A DNA stretch of 6,115 nt, from NCBI GenBank assembly GCA_029820875.1, contig JALGUK010000188.1:1-6115 (forward strand), written 5' to 3'. Of the stretch, positions 1-6,115 are shown in pieces. The notes under the pieces are model-generated. The model was not told the origin of the DNA. It saw nothing but the letters and a program-made list of their open reading frames with translations, and did no database searches. Position numbers and translations under genes: made by a program. The stretch comes from Candidatus Zipacnadia bacterium (GTDB lineage: Bacteria > Armatimonadota > UBA5377 > JALGUK01). How positions within the stretch are numbered: position 1 is the first letter of the stretch; every line of letters begins with the position of its first letter.

Positions 1-1396
1 TTGAAAACACCGCTGCGTGCTCGATGGCGTTTTCCATCTCCCGCACATTTCCAGGCCAGGGATAGTTGAGGAGGTAGTCCAGACAGGTGGCGTCGAGCCG
101 CAACGTGGGCATCTTGAGCCTTCGCGAAAACTTCCTCGTGAAGTAACGCGCAAGCAGAAGAATGTCCTCGCGCCTTTCCCGCAGCGGCGGCACTCTGATT
201 TCTATGACACGCAGACGGTATAGGAGGTCCTCGCGGAACCGCCCTTCAGCTACGGCTTGGTCCAGGTCGCGGTTCGTCGCTGCAAGAACTCGCACGTCTA
301 TTTTCCTCGGAAGGTTCTCCCCGAGGCGAGTAATTTCCCTTTCCTGAAGTACCCGAAGCAACTTGGTCTGGGTTGCTGGCGATATATCGCCGATCTCATC
401 GAGCAGAATCGTGCCGCCTCGCGCCTCCTCGAAAAGACCGACCCGGTCCGCTATGGCGCCCGTGAACGCGCCTGCCTTGTGGCCGAACAGCTCGCTTTCG
501 AGGAGCGTCTCCGGCAGTGCTCCGCAGTTCACCGCCAGGAACGTCCCGCGCGCCCGGTGCGACCGCTCGTGGATATAGCGCGCAAGGAGATCCTTCCCCG
601 TTCCGGTTTCGCCTGTGATCAGCACCGATGTGTCGAAAGGTGCAGCGCGCAATGCCAGATCAAGCGTGCGGCGGAACGACTCGCTTCGGACCTCGATGAA
701 TGGCGCGTGGTTCCCTTCCAGCTTCGCTATGCGTCGTCGCTGGCGCGCCAGTTCGCGCGTCTTCCGCTTCAGTTCCTCTGTCAGAGCGAGAACCTTGCCC
801 TGGATATCGTCCGTCTTGAAGTAAAGCATGTGGGGCTTCAGATCAGGTCCCCACGAGGCTTCATCTTTGCCTACCGCCGTGCACACACGATGCCCCATTC
901 CCCGGCACTTCTCCTCGACGAAGAAAACGTTCCGATCGAGGACGAAGCTGGCGTAGCCGCTGGCATAGCCGACGAGCATCCAACAGATAGGGGCACTCGA
1001 CCGGCCAAACGCCTTCAGGTGTTCCTCGACTTCGCCAGATTCGTGCCAGACGACCTCCATATGGAAGCGAGTGCCGTTTTCATCCATATCGAGCCTCTTG
1101 ACAACTGTTCGGCAAACGCCCTGAAGGGTGTGCATCCGTGGTCCGGCCATTAGCCATTCGCGCCGGTTGTCCCATGAAAAAATGCGCTTCATCGCCGCCG
1201 CGTCGGCACGGCCCCAAAAATATCCGAAACGCGTGAGAATGCGTCGCGCTTGCTCCATACCGACCATTTCGACCAGGTCGTTTCGGAACTGAGCGAAGGC
1301 ATCGATTGAATGAAGGACAAGGCGACGACCGTGCAGGTTGATGGTCCCCTCCCCGAACACGACCAGCTCCTGGAGGCGAAGATCCTGTGCTTTCAT
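1..1396 (-). CDS. Sigma-54-dependent transcriptional activator, XylR/DmpR/MopR type (partial, C-terminus outside window)
   Basis: This cytoplasmic activator opens RpoN promoters in response to a small effector. About 465 residues are present. Residues 10-125 match the XylR_N sensor (AGPRMH at 84-89, W117). Residues 130-190 are a V4R segment with GYASGYASF at 143-151 and C138, E161, C164 and C172. Residues 200-230 form a charged, coiled-coil-like B linker. The AAA+ domain starts near 235, with Walker A GETGTGKD (262-269), the sigma-54 contact loop GAFTGA (309-314) and Walker B LLDE ending at D333-E334; NYPWPGNVREMENAIEHA lies close to the edge. The Fis-type HTH must lie beyond position 1. The ATG at 1396 is preceded by AAAGG and sits where DmpR-like proteins begin; no other in-frame start fits. 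It is divergent from the M20-kinase operon and is its obvious candidate regulator. The sensor spacing equals that of MopR, suggesting an aromatic effector, but the ligand is not proven. Confidence 0.95.
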   Translation of the reverse strand, partial: MKAQDLRLQELVVFGEGTINLHGRRLVLHSIDAFAQFRNDLVEMVGMEQARRILTRFGYFWGRADAAAMKRIFSWDNRREWLMAGPRMHTLQGVCRTVVKRLDMDENGTRFHMEVVWHESGEVEEHLKAFGRSSAPICWMLVGYASGYASFVLDRNVFFVEEKCRGMGHRVCTAVGKDEASWGPDLKPHMLYFKTDDIQGKVLALTEELKRKTRELARQRRRIAKLEGNHAPFIEVRSESFRRTLDLALRAAPFDTSVLITGETGTGKDLLARYIHERSHRARGTFLAVNCGALPETLLESELFGHKAGAFTGAIADRVGLFEEARGGTILLDEIGDISPATQTKLLRVLQEREITRLGENLPRKIDVRVLAATNRDLDQAVAEGRFREDLLYRLRVIEIRVPPLRERREDILLLARYFTRKFSRRLKMPTLRLDATCLDYLLNYPWPGNVREMENAIEHAAVFS

Positions 1397-1517: not shown

Positions 1518-1533
1518 CGGTACGGTGATTGCT
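1517..1533 (+). promoter_or_regulatory. Sigma-54 (-24/-12) promoter of the M20-kinase operon
   Basis: CCGGTACGGTGATTGCT matches the RpoN consensus YTGGCACGRNNNTTGCW at all defined positions but two (C for T just before GG, and T for C just after it). It keeps the invariant GG (1519-1520) and GC (1531-1532) with ten bases between them. Transcription should start near 1543-1545, leaving about 45 nt of leader before the ATG at 1590. It faces away from a sigma-54 activator gene and lies about 100 bp downstream of paired operator-like sites. Confidence 0.75.
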
Positions 1534-1589: not shown

Positions 1590-2810
1590 ATGTACCGGAT
1601 ATTGCGTTCTAAGACGGACGGACTAGCAGAAGACGTCGTCTCGCTGGCACAGGATCTTGTCCGGATAAAGGGACTCAGCTCGGAGGAAGAGCTGGTGGCT
1701 GACTGTGTGGAGCGAGCCTTCCGCGATTTGGGGTACGACCGGGTCGTCCGCGATTCATACGGAAACGTCCTCGGGATCATTCATGGCCGCACGGGTGAAT
1801 CGACCCTGTTGTTGTGCTCCCATCTCGATACGGCATCCCCCGGGAACCTCCACGACTGGGCCGGTTCACCATGGCGAGCCGAGATCACCAACGGCCAGTT
1901 GCACGGTCTCGGTGCGGCCGACTGTAAGAGCGGCCTCGCGGCGCAGATTTATACAGGCGCGTTGCTCAAGCGCAGTCTTCTTCCCCTGGACGGAAGCCTC
2001 ATCGTTGCGGCAACGGTTATGCAGGAAGAGGGGCACAGCACAGGCGTGCGCGAATTGATGAAGGAAACCCTGCCGTCGCTCGAAATGAGGCCCAATTGGG
2101 CGATCCTGGGAGAGCCCACGAACCTTGGATTATACTATGGCCATGAGGGGTGGGTCGAACTATTCGTCTGCGTCGAATCCCCCAATCCGTTCCAGGTAGA
2201 CGATGCAGCCGAGGCTATTTTCGAAACGCTCAACGCGAGACGCAACCATGAAAATGAATACGAGTATTTGTTGGTCCGGCCGCCGCGAATCGAACGGACT
2301 GAGCCCGAAAGGCGCGCCATCATTCCGATCGACCGCCGCCTGCGCCCGGGCGAAGCGGTCGAAGCGGTGATACATGAAATCGGCCTTACCGCAGTGGCTA
2401 CGGCCAGGTCTGCCGGGGGGGTTGCTGTAGACACCGCTGTCCGTCAGACCACGCGCCGCGCGTACACCGGCCGAGGCACCCTTGTGCGCCACGTAACGAA
2501 CGCATGGTCCACCGATCCCTTCAGCCCGCTCATGGAACGAGCACGGCACGCACTGGCGGCTGCTGAGCTGCCAGTGCGGCCCGGTAAGTGGGAACTCGGA
2601 CGTCTCGGGATGGGGACGGCCGGCGGCGTACTACTTCAGGAGTTCGGTATCCCCACACTCGGCTACGGTCCCGGCGACGAGGCTGTCGCACATAGGCCAA
2701 ACGAATACGTCGAGGTGGAAAACATCGTCAAAGCGCTCTACGGGACGGCCGTGATCGCTCACAGCTTGATCGGCGTCCCGGTGTACGGCTGGACGTCGGA
2801 GGATATTTAG
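1590..2810 (+). CDS. M20/ArgE-DapE-type metallohydrolase, YgeY-like, with shortened lid domain
   Basis: The 406-residue product belongs to the M20 metallopeptidase/amidohydrolase superfamily, cytoplasmic di-zinc enzymes that cleave amide bonds of N-acyl amino acids, dipeptides and similar substrates. Visible metal and catalytic residues are H78 and D80 in SHLDT, D111 in AADCKSG, E146 and E147 in QEEG, E175 in GEPTN and H368 in AHRPNEYV, so the active site looks intact. The arrangement, including GEPTN followed by GHEGWVE, recalls the YgeY/DapE branch. The dimerisation/lid domain (about 188-305) is odd: the usual G-x-x-x-H-x-S-x-P-x-x-G-x-N-A-I motif is replaced by SPNPFQVDDAAEAI, losing its His, and the stretch before DRRLRPGE is also short. 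It is the first gene of the sigma-54 operon, 13 bp before the kinase gene. The substrate cannot be named. Family assignment is secure; the YgeY-like subgroup is only likely. Confidence 0.88.
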   Translation: MYRILRSKTDGLAEDVVSLAQDLVRIKGLSSEEELVADCVERAFRDLGYDRVVRDSYGNVLGIIHGRTGESTLLLCSHLDTASPGNLHDWAGSPWRAEITNGQLHGLGAADCKSGLAAQIYTGALLKRSLLPLDGSLIVAATVMQEEGHSTGVRELMKETLPSLEMRPNWAILGEPTNLGLYYGHEGWVELFVCVESPNPFQVDDAAEAIFETLNARRNHENEYEYLLVRPPRIERTEPERRAIIPIDRRLRPGEAVEAVIHEIGLTAVATARSAGGVAVDTAVRQTTRRAYTGRGTLVRHVTNAWSTDPFSPLMERARHALAAAELPVRPGKWELGRLGMGTAGGVLLQEFGIPTLGYGPGDEAVAHRPNEYVEVENIVKALYGTAVIAHSLIGVPVYGWTSEDI

Positions 2811-2823
2811 GATTGATAAAGAC

Positions 2824-4056
2824 ATGGACGTGCTCGTTTTCAACTGTGGCAGTTCGTCGCTCAAGTACCGCCTCGTTCGCATGCCAGAGGAGCGTGAACT
2901 TATCGGCGGCGAGGCGCAGAGAGTGGGACCCAGGACAACCGAACCTCCGGCTATTTTACATAGTGTGAACGGACGGGTAGAGAAACATGCAGCGATCATG
3001 CCGGACCACGCCTCCGCATTCGAGCAGATCATGAAACTTCTGATGCGGGAGCGCGACATGCTGCCCGATGTCATCGCCCACCGTGTGGTCCACGGCGGTG
3101 GGATATTCTCCCGCAGCGTGCTCATTAACGAAAACACCCTCGCTGCCTTGGAATCTATCAAGAGCATGGCTCCGATTCACAACCCGCCGGCCACGAACCT
3201 CATCCGCGCGTGCCGCGAGCGCTACCCCGATCTCCCCCAGGTTGCCGCGTTCGATACGGCCTTTCATGCAACGATCCCCGACTATGCGCGGACCTATGCG
3301 CTGCCCCGGGAGATTAGGGAGCGCTTTGGCGTCCGCAAGTACGGGTTCCACGGCATCAGCCACCAGTACGTAACCGCCGAGGCGGCTCGGTTCCTCGGCA
3401 AAGCGATCGAAAAGTTCAGCGGCGTCAGTTGCCACCTGGGCAGCGGCGGCGCGAGCCTGTGTGCTGTGGTAAACGGACAGTCCGTGGATAATACGATGGG
3501 TTACTCCCCGCTACAGGGACTGCTCATGAGTACACGCTGCGGGGATATCGATCCGGCCGTGGTGCTCCGCATGCTCGGCAGCGCCGCATATGACCGCGTG
3601 ACGGTCGAGCAAATACTGAACAAGAACAGCGGTGTGTTGGGACTCTCGGGCTTGTCGGCCGACATCCGCGACGTACTCGCAGCGGTCGAGAACGCGACGG
3701 ATAGGGATGAACGACTGGCGCGCGTCTGCCAAACCTACCTCTGGCGAATACGCAAATATCTGGGGGCATATCTGACAGTCGTAGGTGACGCTGACGCGGT
3801 CATTTTCACCGACACGGTCGGGGAACTTGTCCATGAGGTGCGCTGGGCCGTGTGCGCGGACATGGACGCGTTTGGGCTTCGGATCGACCCCGAACGGAAT
3901 CGCACCCAGACGAAGTATCCCGCGGATATCGCGGCTGCCGACAGTCGTGTTCGCATCCTCGTGATCCCAACGAACGAGGAACTGGCAATCGCTCGGGAAG
4001 CCTATCGCTTGCTCGAAGGCGTTGCGTCCCGCAAGGAAGGAAAAACTGCGAAGTGA
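2824..4056 (+). CDS. Acetate kinase family carboxylate kinase (AckA-like, variant active-site loops)
   Basis: The 410-residue protein has full acetate-kinase length. Enzymes of this ASKHA-fold family interconvert a carboxylate plus ATP and the acyl phosphate plus ADP in the cytoplasm. Conserved landmarks are N7 in FNCGSSSLK, R87 in HRVVHGG, H119 in APIHNPP, D144 in FDTAFH, H176 and H180 in YGFHGISH, R238 in STRCGDIDP and E385/E386 in NEELAIARE. These correspond to the substrate-binding and catalytic Asn, Arg, His, Asp, His, Arg and Glu of known acetate kinases, so activity is expected. Two loops deviate: the usual HLGNGAS is HLGSGGAS (204-211), and the adenosine-loop motif GIGEN is TVGEL (331-335). 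These suggest an altered substrate or nucleotide preference. The start has AGGA 11 nt upstream. Its stop overlaps the start of a degenerate paralogue. A propionate- or butyrate-type kinase is possible, so I give no gene symbol. Confidence 0.88.
   Translation: MDVLVFNCGSSSLKYRLVRMPEERELIGGEAQRVGPRTTEPPAILHSVNGRVEKHAAIMPDHASAFEQIMKLLMRERDMLPDVIAHRVVHGGGIFSRSVLINENTLAALESIKSMAPIHNPPATNLIRACRERYPDLPQVAAFDTAFHATIPDYARTYALPREIRERFGVRKYGFHGISHQYVTAEAARFLGKAIEKFSGVSCHLGSGGASLCAVVNGQSVDNTMGYSPLQGLLMSTRCGDIDPAVVLRMLGSAAYDRVTVEQILNKNSGVLGLSGLSADIRDVLAAVENATDRDERLARVCQTYLWRIRKYLGAYLTVVGDADAVIFTDTVGELVHEVRWAVCADMDAFGLRIDPERNRTQTKYPADIAAADSRVRILVIPTNEELAIAREAYRLLEGVASRKEGKTAK
4033..4041 (+). promoter_or_regulatory. 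Ribosome binding site inside the kinase gene, sets the GTG start at 4053
   Basis: AAGGAAGGA lies at the end of the kinase gene, 11 nt before a GTG at 4053. That GTG overlaps the kinase stop codon (GTGA at 4053-4056). This is a classic translational-coupling arrangement. It shows why the long upstream extension of this reading frame to 3852 is not coding. Confidence 0.6.
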
Positions 4057-5150
4057 ACACGCTCGTCATCACATGCAAACCGTATCGGCTCCAAGGTACG
4101 TTCCTGTCGGGGGGCCAGGTACTCGCGCGGACTGAGATGGGGGGCTCCGCGGCGACGTCGGATACGCAAGCCAACCTTGCCGCGGCGAGAGAGCAACTCT
4201 CCAGTCAGGCCTCCGCCGGAAGCACGCCGGACTTCATCGCTATCCGTTCCCCGGTGGGTGTGCCCCGCATGAAAGGTGCAGCGCCGATCACGGACGCCAT
4301 CGTGGCGGAAATCGACAGATTGATCCCATCAGCCCCTCTGCATCTGCCGCAGGTGCTCGCTGCCATCGCCGAAGCGGCAGCAACCTGGCCAAAGGTCCCG
4401 CTCTTCCTCGTCTCTGATACGGCATTCTTCGCAGACCTTCCCGCGCGTGAGCGTACGTATGGTCTCGATCCCACCCTTGCAGCCCGATTCGGAGAGCGTC
4501 GCACGGGGTATCACGGTCTCTTTCATGAGGCGGCGTGCCGCTTCGTGAGAAAAGCCCTTCGGAATCCGGAACCTCACAGAATCATCTCCATTTGCCTTGA
4601 ACCCAAACCCGAAACGGCCGCCGTTCTTAATAGTCGGCCCGTGATGGTAACCGGCGGCACCACTCCTATCGAGGGACTTCCCGGCGAGACGGTGTGTGGC
4701 GATATTGATCCTTCCCTCGTGCTCATGCTGGCTGAGAAACTGGACTGTGGACCAGAACGCATCAACGATATCCTGATGCGAGAAAGCGGGCTGCGCGGCC
4801 TCATCGGCCGAAAGGTGAAACTCGGCGACATCCTCAGCCATAATAATCCTACGTATCGTCAGGCGCGTGAAGTCTTTACCTATCGGGTTCTGCTGGCGTG
4901 CGGTGCCGCGGTTGCGGCGATGTCGGGCGTGGACGCCCTCGTCTTCTCCGGACGATATGCGGAAACGGCGCGCGACATCGCGCCGTGGCTGGTCTCGCGC
5001 TTACGACGTGCCGCCGCTGGCGGCAAACGCCAACCGGAATGGCACCTCTTGACGGATCCTGTCGAGAAGATCGCCGCCGAGATGGCCGCCGTAGCATACT
5101 TGGCCTGGTCGATGAGCAGAAATAGACGCGAACCGTGTGTCCAAACTTAA
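4053..5150 (+). CDS. Degenerate acetate kinase paralogue (predicted pseudokinase, possible partner subunit)
   Basis: This 365-residue protein aligns along its whole length with the kinase encoded just upstream: SAPLHLPQ (93-100) with MAPIHNPP, SDTAFFADLP (121-130) with FDTAFHATIP, GYHGLFH (152-158) with GFHGISH, TPIEGL plus CGDIDP (204-220) with SPLQGL plus CGDIDP, and GVDALVFSG (292-300) with DADAVIFTD. Key positions are lost. The NCGSSSLK phosphate loop is replaced by TCKP, with about four residues missing. HLGSGGAS is replaced by LEPKPET. The Arg before CGDIDP is V214, the VGEL loop is YAET, and the Glu pair near the C-terminus is Pro-Val. R65, H97, D122 and H154 remain. The fold therefore looks kept while ATP and phosphate handling looks destroyed. 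The open frame and 4-bp overlap with the active gene argue for a functional product made in step with it, perhaps a heterodimer subunit or ligand sensor. It is about 45 residues shorter than its neighbour. Confidence 0.8.
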   Translation: MNTLVITCKPYRLQGTFLSGGQVLARTEMGGSAATSDTQANLAAAREQLSSQASAGSTPDFIAIRSPVGVPRMKGAAPITDAIVAEIDRLIPSAPLHLPQVLAAIAEAAATWPKVPLFLVSDTAFFADLPARERTYGLDPTLAARFGERRTGYHGLFHEAACRFVRKALRNPEPHRIISICLEPKPETAAVLNSRPVMVTGGTTPIEGLPGETVCGDIDPSLVLMLAEKLDCGPERINDILMRESGLRGLIGRKVKLGDILSHNNPTYRQAREVFTYRVLLACGAAVAAMSGVDALVFSGRYAETARDIAPWLVSRLRRAAAGGKRQPEWHLLTDPVEKIAAEMAAVAYLAWSMSRNRREPCVQT

Positions 5151-5299: not shown

Positions 5300-5324
5300 A
5301 CGTTGCCGGTTGCGGATGGCGTTT

Positions 5325-5349
5325 GAGGGCGTCGGGTGGTGGAGCCCTC
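5325..5349 (+). other. Possible 5' leader hairpin
   Basis: GAGGGC (5325-5330) pairs perfectly with GCCCTC (5344-5349) across a 13-nt loop in the predicted leader of the CPBP gene. No U-tract follows and no known riboswitch is recognised. It may be a leader structure or chance in GC-rich sequence. Confidence 0.25.
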
Positions 5350-5402
5350 CGCCGGGATTCCGTGATAGAATACGGGCCGCGCGGCCAAACGGAGCAGTGG
5401 AA

Positions 5403-6115
5403 GTGCATCTTCCAGACATGAGCGAAATGTTGAAGTCGCTGGTCGTAATAGCAGTCCAGGGCGGTGTCTTCGTCTTCGTGGTTGTGCTGGCGGTGTTGGA
5501 CCGACGTCGGTTCAAACAGTACTACCGCACTGGTCTGCTCATCGGGCTTACGTGTTTTGGGATGGTATCGCTCTCGACTGGTCTTGCGCTGGCGCATATT
5601 GATTTGTCCGCCTTCATGGACCGCTTCGTGCCGTCTGAGGGGCTGTTGGGGGCCTTCTTTTACGTAGGGCTTTTCATTGGTTTCTGCATCCTGGTGCTCA
5701 GGATAGGGTGGCACATGGTGCTCTATTACGTGGCCGCTGCGGAATGGTCTTCGTCGGGGCGGGCTGGTTTCCCGTTGCTGGAGGGCGGGGGCGATATCCG
5801 CTGGAGGGGCATGGCTGGCGCGGCGGCGTTCGGGGTGGGGGCAGCCGTGGTGAGCACGGTGATATTCCTGATGCTGGGCGTTGAGGAATCGGAGCCGCTT
5901 CAGAGGATGGGGGAAATGCTGCGCGGTGTCAGCGAAGTCTCCCCTGCCATCAGGATACCCATTGTCTTGCTTGCGATATCAGTTCCGGCGATTGTGGAGG
6001 AACTGGCGTATCGCGGCGTGCTGCTGGGTTTTCTGGTGCGGCACAGCGGGGGCCGGCGCGGTGCCATCGTGGCTTCGGTCGTGGGCCTCTCACTGCTATG
6101 GGCGCTCATTCACCT
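5403..6115 (+). CDS. CPBP family intramembrane metalloprotease-like protein (partial, C-terminus outside window)
   Basis: A multi-spanning membrane protein, 237 residues of which are visible. Hydrophobic segments lie near residues 12-32, 44-65, 81-111, 136-160, 182-198 and 219-237. The CPBP (Abi/CAAX-protease-like) signature EELAYR (E199, E200, R204) sits at the end of the fifth segment. The second motif, usually FxxxH, appears as WALIH ending at H237 at the window edge, with Trp instead of Phe. Members are intramembrane glutamic/metal-type peptidases used in prenyl-protein processing, bacteriocin immunity or unknown roles; the role here is unknown. The GTG at 5403 is chosen because GGAG lies 8 nt upstream; the ATG at 5418 is the alternative and would shorten the protein by five residues. 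A sigma-70-like promoter precedes it, so a functional link to the kinase operon is not implied. The final motifs beyond the edge cannot be checked. Confidence 0.85.
   Translation, partial: MHLPDMSEMLKSLVVIAVQGGVFVFVVVLAVLDRRRFKQYYRTGLLIGLTCFGMVSLSTGLALAHIDLSAFMDRFVPSEGLLGAFFYVGLFIGFCILVLRIGWHMVLYYVAAAEWSSSGRAGFPLLEGGGDIRWRGMAGAAAFGVGAAVVSTVIFLMLGVEESEPLQRMGEMLRGVSEVSPAIRIPIVLLAISVPAIVEELAYRGVLLGFLVRHSGGRRGAIVASVVGLSLLWALIH

What the first reader, a model, noticed from the sequence alone, without database searches (positions are those of the whole stretch)
2824..5150. Tandem active acetate kinase and pseudokinase paralogue
Two full-length acetate-kinase-family genes lie head to tail with a 4-bp overlap. 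The first keeps the catalytic Asn, Arg, His, Asp and Glu positions. The second keeps the fold landmarks but has lost the NCGSSS loop, the HLGxGAS loop, the Arg before CGDIDP and the C-terminal Glu pair. Acetate kinases are homodimers, so a duplicated and degenerated copy co-translated with the active one suggests an obligate heterodimer with one catalytic and one regulatory or structural subunit. I do not know of a described bacterial acetate kinase built this way.
Basis: partly seen in the sequence, partly recalled or inferred. Interest (0 to 1): 0.85.

Follow-up and report, generated by a model that had tools for sequence, protein, structure and literature searches.

The report
Acetate kinase with pseudokinase partner
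Some bacteria carry a second, unusual acetate kinase gene followed by a degenerate copy of itself that has kept the fold but lost key catalytic residues; the two look like parts of one enzyme that may use pyrophosphate instead of ATP, and I found no description of such a pair.

Summary
ORFs 2824-4056 (ACK, 410 aa) and 4053-5150 (PK, 365 aa) overlap by 4 bp. PK belongs to a conserved family: dN/dS 0.06-0.29 in 16 close pairs, confident AckA fold, catalytic Arg241, His208 and Glu384 kept by 0 of 34, Asn7 by 2 of 34. A pattern scan of a species-genome collection gave 35 PK loci: 33 full ACK-PK pairs, one pair cut by a contig end, one lone 97-residue remnant. In 288 Verrucomicrobiota genomes the 9 found with PK are the 9 found with this ACK type.

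ACK is not ordinary: 34 of 34 carry an extra Gly in the PHOSPHATE2 loop and an Asp in the ADENOSINE loop (0 of 68 ordinary AckAs), published marks of the pyrophosphate-dependent Entamoeba enzyme. And the pair sits in a conserved cassette: divergent DmpR-like activator, sigma-54-like promoter, M20 hydrolase, ACK, PK.

Best reading: an inducible heteromeric acyl kinase with a catalytic and a pseudokinase subunit, probably not ATP-dependent. Heteromer and phosphoryl donor are inferred, not shown.

The parts
2..1396 (-). DmpR/XylR-type sigma-54 activator (XylR_N, V4R, AAA+ domains); runs off the window, so the DNA-binding end is missing
   Evidence: Pfam PF06505 90 bits, PF00158 226 bits; nearest solved chain 6iy8 (CapR/DmpR) 362 bits; divergent from the M20 gene in 28 of 34 loci incl. 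window; 5 of the 6 others end too soon
1518..1532 (+). sigma-54-like -24/-12 element CGGTACGGTGATTGC
   Evidence: only match of YGGYAYGNNNNTTGC in the window, 0.03 expected; GG in 14 of 14 and GC in 13 of 14 aligned upstream regions that I had picked around such a site (so illustrative)
1590..2810 (+). M20-family metallohydrolase (406 aa from ATG 1590, preferred because relatives share the ATG-TAC start; 1572 and 1482 also possible)
   Evidence: PF01546 69 bits; YgeY model NF009555 190 bits, under its cut-off 321; metal-site His and Asp in 31 of 32 copies (one gap), Glu and His in 32 of 32
2824..4056 (+). ACK: acetate-kinase-family protein with catalytic residues but changed nucleotide loops
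   Evidence: PF00871 377 bits; residues
3433..3456 (+). ACK PHOSPHATE2 loop HLGSGGAS with the extra Gly (G208)
   Evidence: 34 of 34 ACK, 0 of 68 ordinary AckA
3805..3825 (+). ACK ADENOSINE loop FTDTVGE (Asp330, Thr331)
   Evidence: Asp330 34 of 34 ACK, 0 of 68 ordinary
4053..5150 (+). PK: pseudokinase paralogue; its GTG start overlaps the ACK stop
4593..4613 (+). PK motif CLEPKPE replacing the PHOSPHATE2 loop
   Evidence: Cys at the His208 position in 33 of 34 PK

Best explanation
ACK and PK are the catalytic and the non-catalytic subunit of one heteromeric acyl (probably acetate or propionate) kinase, translated together from overlapping genes. ACK carries the catalytic site; its longer PHOSPHATE2 loop and Asp-Thr in the ADENOSINE loop suggest a phosphoryl donor other than ATP, with pyrophosphate/phosphate the favoured guess (about even odds). 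PK takes the place of the second AckA protomer; it has lost most of the phosphate, metal and nucleotide side of its site but kept much of the acyl side, so it may also sense the carboxylate or acyl ligand. The operon M20-ACK-PK is switched on by a divergent DmpR-like sensor at a sigma-54 promoter; the M20 enzyme would release the carboxylate that ACK/PK converts. Shown: gene pair, conservation, losses, co-occurrence, cassette, predicted fold. Inferred: heteromer, donor, ligand, inducer, pathway. The confidence given is for the heteromer.
For: ACK lies directly upstream of PK, same strand, in 33 of 35 loci; L033 begins in an ACK tail followed by PK, at a contig end. Gap -20 to +33 bp in 32 of 34 pairs incl. 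window, exactly -4 in 14. In 288 Verrucomicrobiota genomes PK and this ACK type are found in the same 9. PK dN/dS 0.06-0.29. Best-kept stretches of PK are the former PHOSPHATE2/LOOP3 stretch (mean majority share 0.77; ordinary AckA 0.73) and the stretch 301-325 that holds three dimer-interface-pocket residues (0.69; ordinary 0.60); PK is less conserved than ordinary AckA in five of the six other stretches. Published interface-pocket positions (PMC3475010 passages; mapped by motif) carry fixed changes on both sides: ACK Asn223 34/34; PK Val 34/34 there, Ser 23 or Gly 11 at Met230, Leu 22/34 and Ala 25/34 at Lys312 and Tyr313; ACK also has Trp307 34/34 close by. ACK-PK distances correlate (rho 0.66) more than ACK with the ordinary AckA of the same 18 genomes (0.24). 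32 of 33 host genomes have a further, higher-scoring AckA (motifs checked as ordinary for 20 of them), so the pair is unlikely to be the housekeeping enzyme. Donor: extra Gly and Asp as in EhACK.
Against: Linkage and co-occurrence also fit two enzymes of one pathway. The interface changes are not shared by the second pair type: PK2 keeps Thr, Lys and Tyr/Phe at three of those positions, and PK2 has lost the acyl-side residues that PK keeps (His123, Arg91, His180 in 0 of 4), so ligand sensing cannot be general. Even in PK, Val93 is kept by 6 of 34 only. PK evolves faster than ACK in 15 of 16 comparisons by dN/dS. EhACK Met324 and Glu327 are not matched in the window, and in the family Ile/Val and mostly Thr/Leu/Lys, with Glu in 5 of 34, stand there; introducing EhACK residues did not make ATP enzymes use PPi (PMC5517563 and PMC5931981 passages). 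I recall no partner subunit for EhACK.
Confidence: 0.68

Rival explanations
1. PK is not a subunit but a separate enzyme or binding protein with a new activity, made as its own homodimer, acting in the same pathway as ACK and the M20 hydrolase.
For: PK has its own strictly kept residues: Cys at the His208 position 33 of 34, Glu187 nearly invariant and Arg149-Arg150; several acyl-pocket positions are kept (His123 31/34, Leu122 26/34, Arg91 25/34, His180 26/34, Pro232 34/34). The operon also holds a hydrolase, so one pathway explains the linkage.
Against: Fixed changes at the published dimer-interface pocket on both ACK and PK and frequent gene overlap point to physical pairing. A second, distant pair type shows the same tandem habit beside different neighbours.
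Confidence: 0.2
2. Heteromer as proposed (so this overlaps with the best explanation), but ACK still uses ATP/ADP; the loop changes only adapt the site to PK or to purine choice.
For: Gly331 changes in M. thermophila ACK left a slower, ATP-using enzyme with stronger purine preference (PMC4390882 passages). The Ile332-type residue (Ile 31, Val 3) and Asp283 (33/34) and Arg285 (31/34) are kept in ACK.
Against: The extra Gly and Asp330 are absent from 68 of 68 ordinary AckAs and present in EhACK and in ACK2, which groups with EhACK at 100/100.
Confidence: 0.35
3. PK is a decaying duplicate or an assembly artefact.
For: One 97-residue PK remnant stands alone in L035/L113; two loci of the second pair type are frame-broken (L092, L099).
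Against: dN/dS 0.06-0.29 in 16 pairs, whole open frames in 33 loci and the window, several phyla, model pLDDT 87.6.
Confidence: 0.02

Closest known systems
Entamoeba histolytica pyrophosphate-dependent acetate kinase (EhACK, 4h0o)
   Same: Extra Gly in PHOSPHATE2, Asp in the ADENOSINE loop, MSTR in LOOP3; nearest solved chain to ACK2 of L089 (365 against 308 bits) and grouped with ACK2
   Different: Window ACK has Thr/Val/Leu where EhACK has Gln323/Met324/Glu327, forms its own clade, and is encoded with a pseudokinase, a hydrolase and a sensor
Putative PPi-type ACKs of Anaerolineaceae (PMC5517563, section 12)
   Same: The same two loop marks, noted there in four genomes; donor left open
   Different: That section mentions no pseudokinase partner; their neighbourhood was not testable here (no Chloroflexota genome handle)
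Ordinary AckA homodimer (T. maritima 2iir, M. thermophila 1g99)
   Same: Fold; ACK keeps the catalytic residues
   Different: One gene, GxIGEN and HxGNG loops, no paralogous partner
[not shown]
   Same: An ASKHA-fold enzyme paired with an inactive paralogue
   Different: Different chemistry and family; no membership claimed

Membership tests
Acetokinase family PF00871 / TIGR00016 ackA (ACK) | Curated score cut-offs reached and catalytic residues present | tested here: met
   377 bits (cut-off 22) and 374 bits (cut-off 293); residues
TIGR00016 ackA (PK) | Curated score cut-off 293 bits | tested here: not met
   117 bits; Pfam PF00871 is met at 131 bits
Pseudokinase of the AckA fold (PK) | Whole AckA fold kept | tested here: met
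   [not shown]
Pseudokinase of the AckA fold (PK) | Catalytic residues lost across the family | tested here: met
   kept: Arg241 0/34, His208 0/34, Lys14 0/34, Glu384 0/34, Asn7 2/34, Ser10 2/34, Ser12 6/34
Pseudokinase of the AckA fold (PK) | No kinase activity | not testable with these tools
   needs assay
PPi-dependent acetate kinase (EhACK type) | Extra Gly in PHOSPHATE2 | tested here: met
   34/34 ACK, 4/4 ACK2, 0/68 ordinary
PPi-dependent acetate kinase (EhACK type) | Asp322 equivalent and non-Gly at 323 | tested here: met
   Asp 34/34; Thr 33/34, Ser 1/34
PPi-dependent acetate kinase (EhACK type) | Met324 and Glu327 equivalents | tested here: not met
   window Val332 and Leu335; family Ile 31/Val 3, and Thr 16, Leu 6, Lys 6, Glu 5, Asn 1 among 34
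PPi-dependent acetate kinase (EhACK type) | Activity with PPi/Pi and not ATP/ADP | not testable with these tools
   needs assay; so ACK is not filed as a member
DmpR/XylR-type activator | XylR_N, V4R and AAA+ domains; sensor residues of DmpR | tested here: met
   domains; zinc-ligand-type Cys, Glu, Cys, Cys 28/28, phenol-side Trp 27/28 and His 19/28, mapped by motif (residues named in PMC7264223 passages; its printed numbers do not all fit one offset to the chain)
YgeY hydrolase (NF009555) | Curated cut-off 321 bits | tested here: not met
   190 bits; filed only as M20

The most novel reading that the evidence does not exclude
Bacteria have an ATP-independent, two-subunit acyl kinase: a pyrophosphate-type catalytic subunit and a dedicated pseudokinase subunit, which in the type I pair still binds the carboxylate. 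The pairing exists in two forms (type I with M20 and a DmpR-like sensor, type II beside a FolE2-like gene), and the lone Entamoeba PPi acetate kinase descends from a type II catalytic subunit that lost its partner.
Probability: 0.3. Interest if true: 0.9.

Novelty: new variant of a known kind. Interest (0 to 1): 0.74.

Why it matters
Acetate kinase is known as a homodimer that works with ATP; a 2018 paper names E. histolytica as the only source of a PPi-dependent one (PMC5931981 passages). A conserved catalytic/pseudokinase pair with the same loop marks would give bacterial enzymes in which donor choice and pseudokinase function in the ASKHA fold can be tested directly, and would hint at where the Entamoeba enzyme came from. 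It also warns that annotation by family name alone calls these genes plain acetate kinase.

Tried and rejected
Decay or artefact: rejected on dN/dS and distribution. Fused ACK-PK protein as proof of contact: a search with the two window proteins joined, region 470-740, gave none at E <= 1e-10 among the 7993 candidates scored (word-limited, so not proof of absence). Plasmids: 372 records matched PK, all under 60% identity, the ten rows shown at 30-35%: no sign of a plasmid-borne cassette. Rfam and tRNA: none in the window. PADLOC: only the AAA+ part of the regulator matched. Intrinsic terminator after PK: none found. H+-PPase as a sign of PPi economy: 31 of 33 host genomes against 135 of 194 Verrucomicrobiota, at different E-value limits: too weak to use. 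Type II ACK in Spirochaetota: 0 of 149 (no positive control in that draw). G841 was an ordinary AckA in a long open frame; G856 and G859 were ordinary AckAs. The tree of all five groups has long PK branches, so I do not rely on PK and PK2 sharing one origin.

Literature: searches (open-licence PubMed Central papers only) listed no acetate-kinase heteromer, acetate-kinase pseudokinase or M20/V4R/acetate-kinase cassette; subscription papers are not in that library. Seen as passages: PMC4390882, PMC5517563 (its section 12 whole), PMC12507026, PMC3475010, PMC7264223, PMC4207490, PMC5931981, PMC3072085; the other papers as search listings only.

The probability of the novel case was lowered from 0.33 to 0.30 because PK2 does not keep the acyl-side residues.

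Full report
What is there. The window holds, in order, a sigma-54 activator on the minus strand (2-1396, cut by the window edge), a sigma-54-like promoter element (1518-1532), an M20 hydrolase (1590-2810), ACK (2824-4056) and PK (4053-5150), then a CAAX-protease-like gene. ACK and PK are both PF00871 proteins and overlap by GTGA.

PK is a family. A protein search gave 106 hits: 64 at 215 bits or more (the window's own included) and the rest at 131 bits or less; the upper group shares the altered motif RxLSICLEPxPExAAVxGxRPVMVTGGATPLEGLPGET. Alignment A2 holds 56 of the 64; eight short ones were left out. A scan of genome contigs with A2, which used one peptide pattern, matched 50 stretches and gave 35 loci, titled Verrucomicrobia, Lentisphaerae, Omnitrophota, Planctomycetota/Phycisphaerae, Glassbacteria, Myxococcales/Polyangiaceae, BRC1/Sumerlaeota, Spirochaetes and unnamed bacteria (nearly all MAGs, so single titles may be wrong). 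ACK lies directly upstream in 33 of 35. L033 begins in an ACK tail and goes on into PK, which is interrupted by a run of unread bases, while another contig of the same genome (L111) ends inside an ACK behind the regulator and M20; L035 holds only a 97-residue PK fragment. For 34 pairs including the window the gap is -20 to +33 bp in 32, 184 and 249 bp in two, and exactly -4 in 14 (starts chosen by my script).

ACK is special too. All 34 ACK have HLGSGGAS, an insertion of one Gly, and Asp at the position before Gly331; 68 of 68 ordinary AckAs lack both (26 from genomes fetched here and 42). Of the 120 best hits listed for window ACK (7999 passed the limit), 117 match [HQ][LI]GxGG[AS]S strictly, 118 FTDxxGE and 119 MSTR; the six that miss one pattern differ by one letter. 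In E. histolytica the same extra Gly (Gly203) and Asp (Asp322) mark the PPi-dependent enzyme; Dang and Ingram-Smith found both in four Anaerolineaceae and left the donor open (PMC5517563). PMC5931981 states that PPi-ACK had been found only in E. histolytica (passages). Two of the five EhACK occluding residues are not matched in window ACK, so the donor is a guess with support, not a result.

A second pair type. Host genomes also showed a distant tandem, ACK2 (HLGTGGSS, MSTR, FTDDIG in the intact ones) with its own degenerate PK2, in L086, L087, L088, L089, L092, L099 and L132: 7 of 7 loci in which I recognised ACK2 have PK2 beside it; L092 and L099 are frame-broken. They come from seven genomes, two of them in one phylum draw (G012, G902). 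Neighbours differ from type I: a FolE2-like gene after PK2 in L086 and L089, PRC-barrel genes before ACK2 in L086 and L088. The nearest solved chain to ACK2 of L089 is EhACK (365 bits, next 308), and EhACK falls with ACK2 at 100/100 (bootstrap not fully settled, EhACK branch long). In that tree type I ACK, ACK2 with EhACK, and ordinary AckA each lie on one side of a supported branch; the root is unknown.

Cassette and control. M20 lies upstream of ACK in 32 of 34 loci including the window; the two others end first (L007, L029). It is 1.4 kb away in L004 and doubled in L011. The regulator is divergent in 28 of 34; five others end first and in L023 I found none. Three further Verrucomicrobiota genomes (L116-L118) show the same four genes. 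The regulator's zinc-ligand-type residues are kept in 28 of 28, the phenol-side Trp in 27 and His in 19, so an aromatic or similar small ligand is likely. A -24/-12-like site near the M20 start scored above shuffles at p <= 0.05 in 22 of 28 loci (a permissive test with crude shuffles; the window's own p is 0.045, six loci fail), and GG-N10-GC lines up in 13 of 14 chosen regions; in the window the element ends 57 bases before ATG 1590.

One unit. In 288 Verrucomicrobiota genomes I identified PK in 9 (one cut by a contig end) and this ACK in the same 9, adjacent; four of the nine were not in the list. PK was found in 1 of 343 Planctomycetota, 1 of 235 Myxococcota (a second hit was an ordinary AckA) and 6 of 14 Omnitrophota genomes, all of them already known. 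ACK-PK distances correlate at rho 0.63 over 34 loci, and at 0.66 against 0.24 for ACK with ordinary AckA in the same 18 genomes; ACK with M20 gives 0.56 there: the cassette seems to travel as a unit. 32 of 33 host genomes have another, higher-scoring AckA; G001 shows none.

Why a heteromer. AckA is a homodimer. At residues lining its interface pocket (PMC3475010 passages) ACK and PK carry fixed and different changes, and the PHOSPHATE2/LOOP3 stretch and the stretch with the pocket's Arg-Lys-Tyr are the best-kept parts of PK. I mapped the published numbers by motif, so single positions may be off. PK2 does not share these changes. This is indirect evidence. A linked-chain model meant to test contact could not be run.

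Verdict. The heterodimer is likely but unproven; the ATP assumption is doubtful; the substrate is unknown.

Noticed in passing
L086, L087, L088, L089, L092, L099, L132: Second tandem pair type: PPi-marked ACK2 with degenerate PK2, beside a FolE2-like gene in L086 and L089; ACK2 groups with the Entamoeba PPi acetate kinase.
   Followed up: partly
window 2-1396 and 1518-1532: DmpR-like one-component activator divergent from a sigma-54-like promoter; sensor Trp and zinc-ligand residues conserved, His in 19 of 28; inducer unknown.
   Followed up: partly
window 1590-2810: M20 hydrolase nearest YgeY models but under their cut-off; window reads QEEG where most relatives read EENG at the catalytic Glu pair.
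   Followed up: partly
L035 7363-7656 (same place as L113): Lone 97-residue PK remnant with no ACK found nearby, in a genome that also has a cassette.
   Followed up: yes
L011 4066-6668; L004 5251-6658: Two M20 genes in tandem in L011; about 1.4 kb of extra sequence between M20 and ACK in L004.
   Followed up: no
L010 and L027 (both in G010): Two separate type I pairs in one genome.
   Followed up: no
window 5310-6113: CAAX-protease-like gene (Rce1-like, PF02517, weak) downstream of PK.
   Followed up: no
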